Origin: Adineta ricciae
Taxonomy: Eukaryota; Rotifera; Eurotatoria; Adinetida; Adinetidae
NCBI GenBank assembly: GCA_905250025.1
Contig: CAJNOJ010000244.1
Location: 1-64,000 of the forward strand
DNA length: 64,000 nt
Reading direction: 5' to 3'
Shown: positions 4,479 through 54,000 of the stretch, piece after piece
Layout: each line of letters opens with the position of its first letter
Numbering within the stretch: position 1 is the stretch's first letter
Notes under the pieces: generated by a model
Databases searched by the model: none
Told to the model about the DNA's origin: nothing
The model's input: the letters and a program-made list of their open reading frames with translations, nothing else
Position numbers and translations under genes: made by a program

Positions 4479-4620
4479 TCGGTAAGAATATCTACTTGAA
4501 TGATTGAGAGATTGATTCAAGATACGATGCATCTACTTTGTTTTCATCTAATTGAAATATCACACTGATAAAGCAATCGTTTCACAATTTCAATTCATTC
4601 TTCTTTGCATTTAGATTGTC

Positions 4621-5271
4621 ATGCAGTCATCAACTTCTCTACATTCTCTGTCATCCACAACATCTAGCAATTCTTCCAGCTATGGTTCTCGCACTATACT
4701 CGAAACCAAAGATCTTCCATATGCTGCACCTCGATGCCGATCATCTATCGCCGCATTCCTCGAAGATGACGATGCTTATACACTCATCTCGCCACCTTCA
4801 TCTCCTGTACCACCACCACCACCTCCTCCTCGCCGCCGCCGATCACAACTTTCCACATCCAACAAATCCATTGATAAATGTCGTCAGCTCTTTCGTACTT
4901 GTCTTGCGTCAACAGCTTCACCTCTCGCATTGTCAACACACTCTAAACTATCAACTTCGTTCATCCGACAAGAATACTTCGCAAAACTATGTCAAACTCA
5001 TCGATTGCTTCTTGTTCTCAACAGTTATCACTGTGAATGCGGTTGCCAATTTTCCATGGAAGAAGGCAGCTATGTTGTGCTATACGATCAACAAAGTCAA
5101 TCATGTTCATCATACAAAACCAAGGGTGGACTAGTGACAGTGATATCGAACGATTTGGTATGTTCGAAAGTGCCTTGTGAATATGTGTGTGATGTGGAAT
5201 TGTTACGTAGTCGTGTTCGATTGAGACGATATGGCAGTGGAAGTGATGATGAACAAAGTTTTGATTTGTAA
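4621..5271 (+). CDS. Unrecognised 216-aa protein, tandem copy 1
   Basis: The coding sequence is one exon. The 5'-UTR contains an intron (donor CTCG|GTAAGAATA near 4480, acceptor TTTAG at about 4613). The product has a Ser-rich N-terminus, an acidic patch (FLEDDDAY), a polyproline stretch followed by four Arg (PPPPPPPRRRR, about residues 64-74), a middle region with two Cys, and a compact C-terminal half with a CECGC motif and beta-like segments (SYVVLYD, GLVTVIS, YVCDVE). It ends in an acidic tail. I do not recognise the family. The C-terminal half could be a small SH3-like barrel, but that is only an impression. No signal peptide or membrane segment is seen. It differs from the copy at 6554-7204 by about 16 nucleotides, only 4 changing the protein, so this frame is under purifying selection. 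Confidence 0.75.
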   Translation: MQSSTSLHSLSSTTSSNSSSYGSRTILETKDLPYAAPRCRSSIAAFLEDDDAYTLISPPSSPVPPPPPPPRRRRSQLSTSNKSIDKCRQLFRTCLASTASPLALSTHSKLSTSFIRQEYFAKLCQTHRLLLVLNSYHCECGCQFSMEEGSYVVLYDQQSQSCSSYKTKGGLVTVISNDLVCSKVPCEYVCDVELLRSRVRLRRYGSGSDDEQSFDL

Positions 5272-5869: not shown

Positions 5870-6553
5870 ACGCACTTTTCTCATAACAATCAAGAGATTA
5901 ATACTCTAATTGGCTAGTTATATAACAATCACACTTAAGACAATACTGCTTCATGCTGCTCATTTTCACCTGCATCTTATGTTATACGAATGAAATTTAT
6001 CACTTTGTTGATATTTAGCAGTATTTCACCGATGCATCTTCTCCTTTAGGCTATGCACTAAATTAACTATAAAGAACAGTTTCTTTCTTCTTTATCAGTC
6101 AATTTTGATCAAATCATTTGATAACTTTTATGAACGAAACCAATCCACAAAGGGAGACATCTTCACTTTCAGACTGTTTGATCACTTCTTGAAAGATATC
6201 GATGTGAGTGTGCAAATTAGTGACCGCGTAATTGATTGGATTCAATTTATGCAAGTCGTTTAGTATTCATTAACATCACCAGCTTCCTCTTCTTCTTTCT
6301 CTCTCTCTCTCCTTTCGTACTCACTTTCGATTGTTTGTACATACCTATATATAAATCATGCACCATCACATTCACCTTCATCTGTTTCACGAACGTTTCT
6401 CTCCTGAAACAGTCTACAATTCAAATAAAGCACACATCTCGGTAAGAATATCTACTTGAATGATTGAGAGATTGATTCAAGATACGATGCATCTACTTTG
6501 TTTTCGTCTAATTGAAATATCACACTCCTAAAATATTCTTATTTCAGATTGTC

Positions 6554-7204
6554 ATGCAGTCATCAACTTCTCTACATTCTCTATCATCCACAACATCTAG
6601 CAATTCTTCCAGCTATGGTTCTCGCACCATTCTCGAAACTAAAGATCTTCCATATGCTGCACCTCGATGTCGATCATCTATCGCCGCATTCCTCGAAGAT
6701 GACGATGCTTATACACTCATGTCGCCACCTTCATCTCCTGTACCACCGCCACCACCTCCTCCTCGCCGCCGCCGATCACAACTTTCCACATCCAACAAAT
6801 CCATTGATAAATGTCGTCAGCTCTTTCGTACTTGTCTTGCGTCAACAGCTTCACCTCTCGCATTGTCAACACACTCTAAACTATCAACTTCATTCATCCG
6901 ACAAGAATACTTTGCAAAACTATGTCAAACGCATCGATTGCTTCTTGTTCTCAGCAGTTATCACTGTGAATGCGGTTGTCAATTTTCCATGGAAGAAGGC
7001 AGCTATGTTGTGCTGTACGATCAACAAAGTCAATCGTCTTCATCATACAAAACCAAGGGTGGACTAGTGACAGTGATATCGAACGGTTTGGTATGTTCGA
7101 AAGTGCCTTGTGAATATGTGTGTGATGTGGAATTGTTACGTAGTCGTGTTCGATTGAGACGATATGGCAGTGGAAGTGATGATGAACAAAGTTTTGATTT
7201 GTAA
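6554..7204 (+). CDS. Unrecognised 216-aa protein, tandem copy 2
   Basis: This is the near-identical partner of the gene at 4621-5271, offset by 1,933 bp. The coding sequence is one exon after a 5'-UTR intron (donor near 6441, acceptor TTATTTCAG at about 6547). Protein differences from copy 1 are four: Ile to Met after YTL, Asn to Ser in the LNSYH segment, Cys to Ser in QSQSC, and Asp to Gly in ISND. An upstream in-frame Met at 6512 lies inside the 5'-UTR intron. The start at 6554 is preferred because it matches copy 1 and directly follows the acceptor. Function is unknown. Both copies look intact. Confidence 0.75.
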   Translation: MQSSTSLHSLSSTTSSNSSSYGSRTILETKDLPYAAPRCRSSIAAFLEDDDAYTLMSPPSSPVPPPPPPPRRRRSQLSTSNKSIDKCRQLFRTCLASTASPLALSTHSKLSTSFIRQEYFAKLCQTHRLLLVLSSYHCECGCQFSMEEGSYVVLYDQQSQSSSSYKTKGGLVTVISNGLVCSKVPCEYVCDVELLRSRVRLRRYGSGSDDEQSFDL

Positions 7205-48020: not shown

Positions 48021-51000
48021 ATGAATTCATTGTGAGTTTGAAGATCTACTCAACTAATTCGTCATTCGATTGTTTAGACCTCCGTCTGTTAATAGTCTCT
48101 TATCGAATATCAAATCTACGGTTGAATTGTTAATACAATTTCGATGTGATTCTTTAACAACAAAATATGGCGCTATCGAACGACTTCGACTGGCTATTCT
48201 GGCAATTTTATCACACGGTCTCAAACAGGTATTGTTCGAAAACAATCTCCTCATCCGGTCACCTTTGCAAAAGTTAAATACGGGTTGATTATCTCGAGAA
48301 AATTTTGATTAAAGCCTTAAGATACAAAGATCTTATCGAACGCAATTATAGGGAGATGAAAAATGGAATTACGCTTATTAATTTCATCACATAAGTAGAC
48401 AGAAGTAGATCTCTTCTTTCCACTGGGTCTTTGGATGTTATTTACGAATGGTTATTTAGGCAAAAACATCCGTTTGTTATTGTTGAGATGATTGTGATTA
48501 TTGTTAACATTTTCCAATCAACTAACATCACGCAAGTGACTTTGTTCAGAGATATAATTGATCGGATAAAGAACGAAATCTTTGTTTGAAGTTATTATCC
48601 TGATCTATGAAGTTAGTAATAATTTATTAGATTGTTAACAATTGATGTAAGTGGGCGGGGAGCCTTTCATTTGATCAACAATCTTCTCAGAAATAAGATT
48701 ATAGGGCGTGTGCCGAAGTCATGAACAAGACGATTAGCCATATGTACTCTTCAAAGTTAATGATCTTCTAACGTATACTAGTTGGAAGAGTTATCTCTGA
48801 CACGGAACAATCGAGTGTAGGAAGAACATGTTCAAAACTCGATCACCACCCCCGCCGAGCTACCAGTCGTGACACATTACAGTGTACGTCTTCTTTTTAT
48901 CATGAAGTAGTCATTGACAATAGATAATGTTTCAGAATAAACTCTGTCAAGAGTTGACATCGCACTATTTTTTACTTGCTATTACGTCAAGTAATTCTAC
49001 ATGAAAACTTCTGAGTGTTTCGCACGAGTTGCTTGATGACTTCATTACGTCAATGACGAGTCAAAAAAGATCTGTCTAAAGGAAGTTCCTTCTTGACAAT
49101 TCTATATTCAATTCACAAACGCTCATGGTTAACCTAAAGTTTAGAAAAATGTACAAAGAAAACCTTAGATGATGAATCGACTTGTCGATTTCAATTAGTT
49201 CCTAATTAAATTAAATAGAACTCGAAATAGGCAGACTTATACATCCGTATATAAAATGTAAGATTATATCATTAAGCATATATTGTATCAGGTTGTTCAG
49301 AACGAACTACTAATAAGAAAAGTTCAGATGTGAGTCATGGACTGTAGTAATCAATCTCGTTGAATATCAGTTCAAGAAATTGTTTTAATTAATACATCGA
49401 TGAACTCGAGATTATGGGAAAGAAAATTTTCTACAATTCTCTATTTATAGAATGCGGGAGATGTATACGAGCAATTGTGGCAGTTAATCGTTCGTTTAAA
49501 TGCAAATTCTCAACGTTACATTCGTCTACTTCAAGATATTTATCATAAAGAAAATATACGATTGTCAGTCGAACAATGGATCGATCAATCAGTGATTAGT
49601 CAATGTTTATCACACCAACTATGCTGTGCTACAAACGATAATGATCTACTTCCACATTACTACTACAGTAAGTGTTCAATATTGGCTTCTGGAATGTCGA
49701 TTTTCTTTTATTTGAATTATTTATTCTCTGCTGTCTGGAATAAACAATTTGTTAGATGGTCAATATCGAAAATGAAATAGATATATAGAGATCCGTCTAT
49801 CGTCGACGACCAATATAAGGACGCATGTTTTTCGTAAAGTGATGTTTCGGATCAGGAACTAACATGATATAATCCCCTTGACGAACGATATAAAAGCCGC
49901 TAACACGTCTTTGTCGATCAATGTCGTGGTCATACGAAAGTTGTTCATCGAACATTATCTGCCGTCGATTTCGAAATGGACTAATCTTGTTGTTGCGATT
50001 GAGATTTGTTAGTGAAGATAACGATAGAGGATAAGCATTGGAGATAGATGGTAATATACAGCAGATGAATACAAACAAAAATAGGACAGATGCGACGCGA
50101 TTAGGCGACGAACGAACTCGATCAATCGTTGAATGGAAGAAGAAGAGCATTGATTGATTAATTGAATTTGAGATACTCTCCTTCTTCTGTTTTTGGATGA
50201 TTTTTGCAATATGTTATCCCGTTGTTCTACGTTTTTTTTTATTCTATACTAACCAAATGGAGAGAAGAAAAAAAGATGTAGAATGAGATAAATAGACATA
50301 TAGGGGAAAAAAAGAACAGAAATAAGAAATGATAGATCTAAAGTATTGACCCATTAGATACGAACAAGTTTTCGATTGTTCTCACTCCCTTCCCCTGAGA
50401 AAGATCATCCTGTTGTCTAACAATGAAGTCTAGTCCTATCAGTACTAAGAGCTGATGCTCCCTTGGCGTATCGAATCAACTAGTGGATACATGAACACTT
50501 ACATAATAGTATCACGATGATATGAATGCCATAATTGGTATGGTTGATAGAACAAGATGAAAAATTAGTATGGGTTTTTCTTCGAGAATTCTAAAATATT
50601 AGGAGAAATTTATAACAAAAAGAGGAAATCATTCGTTAGTAATCAAGATAAATGATGTCTGTTCTTTTCCTACGTAGTCCGTGGAGACAGAAAGAGAAAA
50701 AGAAAGAAAAGAAAAAGAGCAGAGAGAGAATAAAATATCTGGATGTTCCAACATTCTCTTTTTCATTTTCTAATCATGTAAAAAAACAGAATTAATAACA
50801 CAATGTTTGACGTCAAGGACAGTCAAGGAATTTCAACTGGTGAACGAAGAAAAAGATAGTAATACGGATGATTGAATATCCATGATGGATGAGAATTAGA
50901 AGACAAAAGAAAAGAATATAGTCAACTACCGGATGTTGAATGCAAAGAAATATGAAAAAGTGCGAGTGGGCGTTCAGACTATAATGAGTGTAATCGGATA

Positions 51001-54000
51001 TGATCAGCAATAAATAATACTCAGCTTTGGTAATGATTCAATATAATAAAAAAAGCGGATAAACTGAACCAAGTGTGACTAACCTCAACTACCCGAATGT
51101 AAACGTTTTCTCTTTCTCTTTAGATCATGCTTTCATGCGAATATCAGCGTTTTATGAAGCATTCCTGTTATGCATACGAGCTGTTGAATATAATGATCCG
51201 TCGCTATTGATTGACATCGACCCGAAATTGGTAAAAATGAAGTTGAAGGAAAAGTTTATTGCTTCATGTCAATGTTGTTCATCTGCTTGTAGTCTGTTAC
51301 CGGATATAATCCCACGATAACTATCAAGGAAGTAGCAAGTCCTTCAACTACTCTTCCATCCCCTCCTACGAAAATCTTCTCGCCAATGCTCCTTTCGGCT
51401 GATAAAACTACAGATGATATTCAAGAAAAACTTCGTTAGTAAGAACATCACGTAATTCCCCGCTTCAACTCTTCTATATTTAGATCCACTTACTCGTCAA
51501 CGTACACTTCACCGCCGTATTCATAGTGATCCAGTCTTCTCCATCCCTAAACATTCTCTTAGTTCAAATCGCCTACGTGTTACGTCACCACCACCTACAC
51601 CTATCCATGATGAGAATAAAAGTATTCCAAGCATATCCTATTTTCAATCAGACGAATGTGGTTCCTATGGATCAAGTTACGACTCTCGTGGGGATATATT
51701 GGATCAAAATAAACAAACGAATCTAACTTTAGGACAGTCGACCTCTCCTCAAGCGCATCGCCAGTCAATATCGAGTGATATCACTTTGATTGATGAGAAG
51801 AATCACAATAATCGATCCTCGCCGTCATTCACCAATGAAGAGACAACACTCTCAACCAATTCTACCTCACCTATGGATCAGAGTTTTACAACATTTTCGA
51901 CAAATGATCACCCTACACGAAGTAAGTTTTAGCGAATAACTTCCTCACCTATTAATTTATCGTAACTCATTGGAGGAGAACGTTGAGAATGCGAAGAAAA
52001 AACTATTTTAACTCTTTTTATATTAGAGAAATGACGTGATAATTACTCTCGACCTGGAAAATTCTTTTCTTTCTCTCCGAATAGTTTAACACTACGAACG
52101 CAGTGTCATAAACAGATGAACTATTTTATCAAATGTAACATATCATACTTTATCTAATTGAACTCTTCGAAAATGTCGGAAGCGGAAATAGATCTGATTT
52201 ACTCATAAAGAAAACTTTTCTCCGTGCGTGAGTTTTGCAAAAAGTGTAACCAACTGAAGTGGATGTCATGATGATAATGACCGAATTTTCACTCGTATGT
52301 ACGCTGTTAACAAAGAACGCCTGTGGAAATACCGTCCTACATATGAATGGAAAGTACGGAAGCCTAAGCGTCGAAGGTCAATCCGATTATGAATAGAATT
52401 CCAACAATAAATGTATTTTATTGCTATAAGGTCGTTCTTCAAGGTCGAATACTATCTGCATAATAAATCTCTGGCTTTATCGCTCAATTGATTTAATAAG
52501 ACGAAAGATTGAATCGTATTATTCGGGACTAGGAACTGTATAATCCTTCAACACTAAACTACTAGAAAAGCTAAAACTAGCAAAAGTCTTAACATTATAC
52601 GCAACAGTTTGTTAGAAGAGCATTGTGAAAAGGAAACAGAAGGCGGATTGTGGAAACGGCATTGTTTCCAATTTAGGCGTTAATTTACTTAAAGTACGAT
52701 TCATTCAATTATAATTACTATAACAAGTCGTAGGTGTATATGAGTAAAACAATGTTTGAGATGTGAATGTATTTATTACGTAGTTCCTCCCACGGATAGA
52801 TATTTGTAAATTATGTTTGAAAGCATGATAAACTAATCAAATGAAACATCGCACATGTTCATGACAAGATATCGTCGCACTTATACAACCTGAAGGAAGA
52901 AAATTAATAAAAACTCTTTCTACTATTTACAGTTAGCGTATTACAGGGAAGGAAGATAAGAGAATTGACAAATGATTGTTAACTCTGTTTGAAAATTACA
53001 TACTCGATAAATATTCCGCGAGGGGAAAACATCTGCTTCTATATTTTTTTTACTCCTTTTCTAATTAAATTCAATAGGAGATCATATATCAAGAAGATCC
53101 TGATATCGGCTTTTAATCCATGAATGATATATCTTGAGTACTATCATTTTTTTTAGGTATTCGTCTTCCACACTCTTCGTTACTTTGGCCTCGAAAAGGT
53201 CAAACGCTCGATAATTACATTCGCGAGTGTGATTTAAAAACTCGTACAGATGTTGAAAAGGTAAATATTTTGCTTTTATTCATGTGTCGAAAAACTACGA
53301 AAACTTCTTCCAATCTTTTCTTCAAGGAGAATGCACATTTCTACTTCAGTGAAGCCATCATATCGGCCATTGAACAAATTAAATTTACTCAGCAATGTAA
53401 CAAATACTTTGGCCAATCATGGCCATCATCATCGATAGCTAGTCTGTGTTCACCGTGCGAAACTGTTCACGTTTCTTCCTCAAATAGCAGTTCATCACCA
53501 CCTACACAACAATATATACCTTGTAATTCAAAACTAGTAACTAGTAATGAGTACAAAGTAGGATAGTGTTTTGTTTCTGTTTGAACTTTCTGACGAATAA
53601 GAATACGTTCTAGAATTCGACGATGGAAATATCACAATATGATCCGAATTCGGAGATAACAGAATCGAGTTTGTGATTTATTTCGTTGTTCCAAAGAAAA
53701 ATCATACTATTTCATTTTAGCTGAAGCACCTAATAATTTCGATTGGTCTGTTCGAAGTTCTGCTTTAAGTTTAAAGTAATCGAAATTCTGTCAAAACTGT
53801 TCTTTCATCGCTCTGGCATACTTTTAGTTTACAAGAAACATCTGCGGAATCTATAGGTACTTTTTTTCTGAAAACTACTCTGTTCATTGATTCGGATGAT
53901 TTATTTTATTTAGCGTTATCACTGATGGAAACATGGAAGAATTACAAAGTTCCAACAGCACCTGAACTCTTCTGGATGATTCCACATGATGAAGATCTAC

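What the first reader, a model, noticed from the sequence alone, without database searches (positions are those of the whole stretch)
49797..50150. Nested antisense gene for an apparently undescribed amidated neuropeptide
Inside an intron of the Rubicon-like gene, on the opposite strand, a 117-codon intronless frame has a signal peptide, two R-x-R-R cleavage sites and a terminal Gly-Arg-Arg-Arg. Predicted products are a 15-mer with N-terminal Gln and a 31-mer ending ..NMRPYI-amide. I cannot place it in a known family (it is not NPY/NPF, RYamide or SIFamide by its C-terminus). A host-gene intron as home for a peptide precursor is also uncommon.
Basis: partly seen in the sequence, partly recalled or inferred. 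Interest (0 to 1): 0.72.

Follow-up and report, generated by a model that had tools for sequence, protein, structure and literature searches.

The report
Conserved intron-nested bdelloid neuropeptide precursor gene
Inside an intron of a Rubicon-like gene of a bdelloid rotifer, on the opposite strand, sits a small intact gene for a secreted, probably amidated 31-residue peptide that matches no family we could test and is kept in the same intron of the duplicated gene copy elsewhere in the genome.

Summary
Window 49797-50150 (minus) is a 117-codon intronless frame with a signal-peptide-like start, RNRR and RQRR sites and a GRRR end. It lies in a 1456-base phase-1 intron of a RUN/Rubicon-homology host gene. 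The decisive evidence is a second copy, the only other match in the 130 Mb genome (E 7.5e-16). It is also antisense in the same host intron, in a collinear duplicated block. In both copies the last cleavage site is followed by exactly 31 residues, then GRRR-stop. This end is 18 of 35 identical, finishes RPYIGRRR in both, and is conserved at protein level in this frame. The genome has a bdelloid-type spliced leader, an amidating enzyme exon, 7B2 and ordinary NPF genes. No match passed Pfam cut-offs or was found in the PDB or in text searches. Best reading: a genuine, unnamed amidated peptide-hormone precursor, older than the block duplication. Transcription, amidation, receptor and presence in other species are untested. 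Nesting in introns is common, so novelty is a new member of a known kind.

The parts
49797..50150 (-). Peptide precursor CDS, 117 codons plus stop, intronless
   Evidence: duplicate copy G000:C129:172895-173224 +
50034..50150 (-). Signal-peptide-like segment, residues 1-39 (hydrophobic core, SNA|YP-type cleavage context); the duplicate has the same arrangement (VANA|SI)
   Evidence: judged by hydrophobicity and the small-x-small rule (recalled), no predictor available
49905..50033 (-). Spacer, residues 40-82, with RNRR (60-63) and RQRR (79-82); variable in length and sequence between copies (10 of 32 aligned residues identical); only the second site keeps the R-x-x-R form (RHAR) in the duplicate
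49812..49904 (-). Predicted mature 31-mer VSGFYIVRQGDYIMLVPDPKHHFTKNMRPYI-amide
   Evidence: duplicate is GTGYFVYRKGEYLIFVPDRRHLITKTLRPYI, also 31 residues
49800..49811 (-). Gly (amide donor) plus Arg-Arg-Arg, residues 114-117, immediately before the stop codon; identical at protein level in the duplicate
50249..50250 (-). AG of a splice-acceptor-like site (pyrimidine-rich tract then TTAG), 98 bases before the ATG; a similar site leaves 78 bases before the ATG in the duplicate; candidate SL trans-splice or 5'UTR-intron acceptor
   Evidence: sequence; use is inferred
49707..49725 (-). Two AATAAA polyadenylation-signal sequences 72-90 bases 3' of the stop; the duplicate also has AATAAA, 65 bases after its stop, in a shared CAGCAGAGAATAA context
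50328..50347 (-). 20-base non-coding stretch upstream of the gene, 18 of 20 identical in the duplicate; possible promoter element
   Evidence: weak, E 0.018
50867..50920 (-). Stretch aligned over 60 columns at 75% with gaps in the duplicate's intron; possible distal element
   Evidence: E 4e-4, pyrimidine-rich, may be partly compositional
49668..51123 (+). Host intron (phase 1) of the Rubicon-like gene that contains the peptide gene
   Evidence: duplicate intron C129:171504-173329, 1826 bases
49451..49667 (+). Host exon just upstream (part of RUN domain)
   Evidence: 68% identical to the duplicate's exon
51124..51230 (+). Host exon just downstream (RUN domain continues, HAFMRISAFYEAFLLCIRAVE...)

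Best explanation
This is a functional peptide-hormone or neuropeptide precursor gene of a bdelloid rotifer. Proposed route: it is transcribed antisense to its Rubicon-like host from its own promoter inside the intron, possibly SL trans-spliced just upstream of the ATG, and polyadenylated at or near the end of the intron (all inferred). The signal peptide sends the precursor into the secretory pathway. A furin or prohormone-convertase type enzyme cuts after RQRR (RHAR in the second copy). Carboxypeptidase trims the terminal arginines and PHM/PAM turns the exposed Gly into an amide, giving one 31-residue peptide ending Arg-Pro-Tyr-Ile-amide that probably acts through a receptor. Shown: the intact frame, the second copy in the same intron, frame-specific conservation of the 31-mer plus GRRR, and the presence of amidating-enzyme and 7B2 sequences in the genome. 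Inferred: every expression, processing and receptor step.
For: One other match in 130 Mb, E 7.5e-16, no stops; the degenerate RPYIGRRR-coding pattern occurs exactly twice genome-wide, in these two genes, and 0 times in the reversed control. Both copies are antisense in the same phase-1 host intron inside collinear duplicated blocks. 31-mer plus GRRR: 18 of 35 identical, pS 0.533 vs pN 0.232, Fisher P 0.002 on rounded counts; whole frame 0.614 vs 0.329, P 1e-5 on a protein-guided alignment. BLOSUM similarity of the 35-residue end exceeds a matched-substitution null at P 1e-4 in this frame; the other five frames give P 0.053 to 0.93. The genome has a PHM exon (C371; all 13 PDB matches are PHM/PAM), 7B2 matches and SL exon sites.
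Against: No transcript or peptide data. Codon usage is not distinctive (rank 35 of 96). Counting amino-acid changes alone, 17 in the 35-residue end against 20.1 expected by chance is not significant (P 0.087), and the signal core alone is borderline (P 0.06). Only two copies from one genome; no other rotifer genome could be searched. The predicted third beta strand runs through the Gly that amidation would consume, which fits a small secreted protein as well as a trimmed peptide. RHAR in copy 2 is only a minimal furin site.
Confidence: 0.72

Rival explanations
1. A secreted but non-neuroendocrine peptide, for example an epithelial or immune effector such as a cationic beta-sheet antimicrobial peptide, matured by the same enzymes or left unamidated.
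For: Net K+R minus D+E of the 31-mer is +2 and +4; AlphaFold2 predicts a cysteine-free three-stranded sheet for the 35-residue end (mean pLDDT 89.5, pTM 0.50; same strands in the whole precursor).
Against: An invariant final RPYIGRRR with more drift in the N-terminal part of the 31-mer looks like a receptor-facing amidated end; only two copies genome-wide and no expanded family. Two-sequence beta models of short peptides may be overconfident and no control fold was run.
Confidence: 0.2
2. A strongly diverged member of a known bilaterian peptide family that sequence searches miss.
For: Gnathiferan neuropeptides are thinly sampled (passages of PMC8557429), so intermediates that would reveal kinship may be missing; RPYI recalls neurotensin's RPYIL and, loosely, PRXamide ends (recalled, untested).
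Against: No Pfam match above cut-off for either precursor or for the 35-residue ends (one sub-threshold hit, XOL-1, E 0.11). NPF exists separately in this genome, its open frame stopping right after ...ARPR as expected for the usual intron.
Confidence: 0.25
3. A chance open frame or decaying pseudogene in the intron.
For: Codon usage uninformative; a hydrophobic start plus Gly-basic end arose once in 60 simulated windows.
Against: Second copy intact with frame-specific conservation; 76% of matched random substitution sets would have put a stop in the 35-residue end.
Confidence: 0.03

Closest known systems
NPY/NPF family (PF00159), including this genome's own NPF genes
   Same: Signal peptide followed by one long amidated peptide; R-P near the C-terminus
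   Different: Ends RPYI not R-x-R-F/Y; no PF00159 match; no break of the frame at the C-terminal Arg codon; the peptide lies at the very C-terminus of the precursor after a spacer
Neurotensin / PRXamide group (neuromedin U, pyrokinin, ETH), recalled
   Same: RPYI resembles neurotensin RPYIL; PRX-like basic-proline ending
   Different: Neurotensin is not amidated and continues to Leu; PRXamides end P-R-X-amide. All recalled; kinship not tested by search
DH31/calcitonin-type peptides (recalled)
   Same: About 31 residues, Gly plus a run of Arg at the end
   Different: Different sequence and no GP-amide end; no Pfam match above cut-off
Lophotrochozoan NKY and rotifer FCAP-type precursors (passages of PMC6425005)
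   Same: Spiralian peptide precursors; FCAP reported from three Rotaria species
   Different: NKY is described by terminal K and Y with other core motifs; rotifer FCAP precursors carry eight or nine 11-residue copies, here there is one 31-mer

Membership tests
Amidated peptide-hormone/neuropeptide precursor (general kind) | N-terminal signal peptide | tested here: met
   Best 12-residue Kyte-Doolittle means 3.5 and 2.9 near the start of the two copies, small residues at -3/-1 read off; no dedicated predictor
Amidated peptide-hormone/neuropeptide precursor (general kind) | Basic cleavage site before the mature peptide, kept between copies | tested here: met
   RQRR vs RHAR at the same distance from the end; only minimal R-x-x-R in copy 2
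Amidated peptide-hormone/neuropeptide precursor (general kind) | Gly followed by basic residues at the peptide's C-terminus | tested here: met
   GRRR-stop in both copies
Amidated peptide-hormone/neuropeptide precursor (general kind) | Expression in neurons or endocrine cells, detected mature peptide, receptor | not testable with these tools
   No RNA, peptide or receptor data available
NPY/NPF (PF00159) | Match to the family profile | tested here: not met
   the genome's own NPF segment matches at E 2.3e-8
NPY/NPF (PF00159) | R-x-R-F/Y-amide C-terminus | tested here: not met
   Both copies end RPYI-G
NPY/NPF (PF00159) | Intron splitting the C-terminal Arg codon (defining status recalled) | tested here: not met
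   Frame continuous through the end in both copies, unlike this genome's NPF frame, which stops after ...IIARPR (intron inferred)
RYamide/luqin, SIFamide, PRXamide, neurotensin (motifs recalled) | Family C-terminal motif | tested here: not met
   Read off the sequence: RPYI-G in both copies
Neurotensin / PRXamide receptor clade ligands | Activation of the cognate receptor | not testable with these tools
   No assay or receptor data

The most novel reading that the evidence does not exclude
A previously unnamed bdelloid (perhaps gnathiferan) peptide-hormone family: a cysteine-free, 31-residue amidated ligand that folds as a small three-stranded beta-sheet, with a fixed RPYI-amide end, encoded antisense within the same Rubicon intron since before the duplication of the genome blocks, and thus a marker that should be found in that intron in every bdelloid.
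Probability: 0.35. Interest if true: 0.6.

Novelty: new member of a known kind. Interest (0 to 1): 0.46.

Why it matters
Neuropeptide signalling in Gnathifera (rotifers and kin) is thinly sampled; PMC8557429 (passages) calls an in-depth gnathiferan survey the next frontier and says that only very few precursors were found in three Rotaria species. A conserved precursor with a fixed genomic address gives an exact query for other rotifer genomes, an exact mass for peptidomics, and a ligand for orphan-receptor screens. The conserved nesting also offers a case for asking whether an antisense intronic gene and its host constrain each other.

Tried and rejected
Homologues elsewhere: scans of viral contigs with the full alignment (286 pattern stretches, none confirmed) and with the 35-residue end (34 stretches, none confirmed); genome contigs with the full alignment (317 stretches, 1 hit of 25 residues, 64%, in the hydrophobic signal segment, from an Oscillospiraceae bin), judged a compositional match and dropped. 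In some searches the patterns came from the signal segment and spacer, not the conserved end, and genome contigs was never scanned with that end. These collections are viral and prokaryotic, so their silence says little.

Structure: Foldseek against PDB gave no match at E 0.001 or better for the precursor model (best E 0.91) or the 35-mer model (best E 1.8); the 1-2 Å overlaps with LexA and with PH and FERM hairpins look like generic beta. Codon-usage test: uninformative. Amino-acid change count alone: not significant (P 0.087). The signal core alone is borderline (P 0.06).

Amidating enzyme: 24 PF01082 matches. The best (C18, E 1.9e-41) sits in a frame that looks DBH-like to me and C61 looks MOXD-like (recalled, untested); they were not counted. 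Five further places were fetched and their frames read; only the C371 exon was tested, with 78 of its frame's 149 residues, and it is PHM/PAM.

Copy 2 intron: at first taken as 4203 bases; a 16-base identity at the HAFMR exon start placed its 3' end, and fixed it at 1826 bases and corrected the window intron to 49668-51123. The rest of that host exon lies about 2.3 kb further on in copy 2, so copy 2 of the host may carry an insertion or be damaged there; unresolved.

Full report
What is there. The minus-strand frame at 49797-50150 is as described: ATG to stop, 117 codons, no intron. Residues 1-39 read as a signal peptide, RNRR is at 60-63, RQRR at 79-82, then 31 residues (83-113), then GRRR and the stop. 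The frame sits in a phase-1 intron (49668-51123, 1456 bases, GTAAGT...TTTAG) of a plus-strand gene whose exons match the RUN domain (PF02759, E 2.6e-8) and the Rubicon homology domain (PF13901, E 6e-25), so the host assignment holds.

Chance. In the window, 91 ATG frames of 60-250 aa exist; 19 pass a crude hydrophobic-start rule, 1 ends in Gly-basic, and only the reported frame has both. In 60 simulated 64-kb sequences, 2525 frames gave 321 hydrophobic starts, 6 Gly-basic ends, 1 with both and 0 meeting all criteria at 100 aa or more. That is unusual for one window but, scaled from a single event, would recur some 30 times in 130 Mb, and codon usage does not help (rank 35 of 96). The architecture alone is therefore suggestive, not proof.

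The second copy. The genome in which the window lies is held (130,461,839 bases, 1033 contigs). A protein search found two places: the gene itself and C129:172898-173221 on the plus strand, E 7.5e-16, 38% identity, no stops. The full second frame is 109 aa, C129:172895-173224 with its stop. The pattern coding for RPYIGRRR occurs twice in the genome, in these two genes, and 0 times in the reversed control. Of 35 aligned DNA pieces between C129:150001-190000 and the whole window, 34 are collinear in reverse with window 31-64 kb, at 64-91% identity, and 1 is a short off-line match near 16.2 kb; this is the picture expected of the duplicated blocks of bdelloids (recalled). The second frame also lies antisense in the Rubicon-like gene: the upstream host exon is 68% identical at protein level and its donor is in the same place and phase. 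The 3' end of that intron is recognisable by CATGCTTTCATGCGAA at the HAFMR exon start, giving an intron of 1826 bases, C129:171504-173329. The nesting therefore predates the block duplication.

What is conserved. The two precursors differ in length (117, 109), mainly in the spacer; both end in exactly 31 residues between the last basic site and GRRR: VSGFYIVRQGDYIMLVPDPKHHFTKNMRPYI and GTGYFVYRKGEYLIFVPDRRHLITKTLRPYI. Identity is 16 of 37 in the signal segment, 10 of 32 in the spacer and 18 of 35 in the 31-mer plus GRRR. In that ungapped end, pS is 0.533 and pN 0.232 (rounded counts, Fisher P 0.002), with 6, 9 and 17 differences at codon positions 1, 2 and 3 (chi-square P 0.048); over 104 aligned codons pS is 0.614 and pN 0.329 (P 1e-5, but the alignment was guided by protein). 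Re-dealing the same substitutions at random 20,000 times, the observed BLOSUM62 score of 114 (null mean 60) is reached with P 1e-4 in this frame; the other five frames give P 0.053 to 0.93. Against this, the bare count of changed residues (17; null mean 20.1) is not significant (P 0.087). Outside the frame the introns align only in small patches.

What is not conserved. The second site reads RHAR, a minimal furin site. I therefore take the 31-mer as the single product, with a possible shorter HLITKTLRPYI-amide from copy 2 through its internal RR (inference).

Transcription signals. In both copies a pyrimidine-rich tract and AG lie upstream, leaving 98 and 78 bases before the ATG; the 18 bases CAATCAATGCTCTTCTTC around the ATG are identical; and AATAAA lies in a shared context downstream of the stop. 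Bdelloids trans-splice a 23-base leader to more than half of their transcripts (PMC1925144, passages, citing an earlier paper that I did not see). The leader as I recalled it gave 0 exact matches, and 46 with up to 3 mismatches, 41 of them one base off, against 0 in the control. This supports a bdelloid and makes SL trans-splicing upstream of this gene plausible but unshown.

Machinery. Profiles for 7B2 (PF05281; best E 7.8e-10 in a stretch with two stops inside, next 2.0e-9 with none) and copper monooxygenases (PF01082, 24 matches) match this genome. The strongest PF01082 hits look DBH/MOXD-like to me, but an exon on C371 matches PHM/PAM in all 13 of its PDB hits (best E 6.3e-8). Amidation is therefore probably available; the rest of that gene was not examined. 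NPF genes are present too (PF00159; a frame that stops right after ...SYYAIIARPR; E 2.3e-8).

Family. Neither precursor nor either 35-residue end matches Pfam above cut-off (one sub-threshold XOL-1 hit for the window precursor, E 0.11), and the window precursor matches nothing in the PDB by sequence at E 10. AlphaFold2, with only two sequences, gives the 35-residue end a three-stranded sheet with mean pLDDT 89.5 and pTM 0.50, and the same strands in the whole precursor, but Foldseek finds no convincing relative. The third strand includes the Gly and first Arg that processing would remove, so the model may describe the precursor end rather than the peptide, and no control fold was run. Text searches for RPYIG-type strings found 0 papers; for RPYI/PYI-amide strings no neuropeptide paper by title among those listed (20 of 35 listed; the 1 paper is on liposomes). 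PMC8557429 (passages) and PMC6425005 (passages) suggest that rotifer neuropeptides are thinly sampled. Most subscription papers are not in that library and supplementary tables were not searched, so 'undescribed' is provisional.

Verdict. The gene is very likely real and makes a secreted, processed peptide; amidated signalling is the best reading at about 0.7. Intronic nesting is ordinary as a category (start of the PMC3786989 abstract, listing), though the stability of this one across a block duplication is worth noting. Novelty: a new member of a known kind.

Noticed in passing
window 31000-64000 and G000:C129:159000-190000: Long collinear duplicated block in reverse orientation (34 of 35 aligned pieces, 64-91% identical), as expected of bdelloid degenerate tetraploidy.
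   Followed up: partly
G000:C129:169017-171503: In the second host copy the exon starting HAFMR appears split, with its continuation FLICIR... about 2.3 kb further on and an in-frame stop just before it; a new intron, an insertion or host decay.
   Followed up: partly
window 4615-5271 and 6512-7204: Two nearly identical frames (MQSSTSLHSLSSTTSSNSSSYGSRTILETKDLPYAAPRCRSS...), apparently a tandem duplicate.
   Followed up: no
window 50867-50920: Conserved non-coding patch in the peptide gene's upstream region within the host intron (75%, E 4e-4), shared with the duplicate.
   Followed up: partly
G000 contigs C6, C8, C43, C77, C79, C99, C146: Spliced-leader exon copies in inverted pairs, many about 153 bases apart (for example C6:235175 minus and 235328 plus), pointing to divergently arranged SL RNA gene pairs in clusters.
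   Followed up: no
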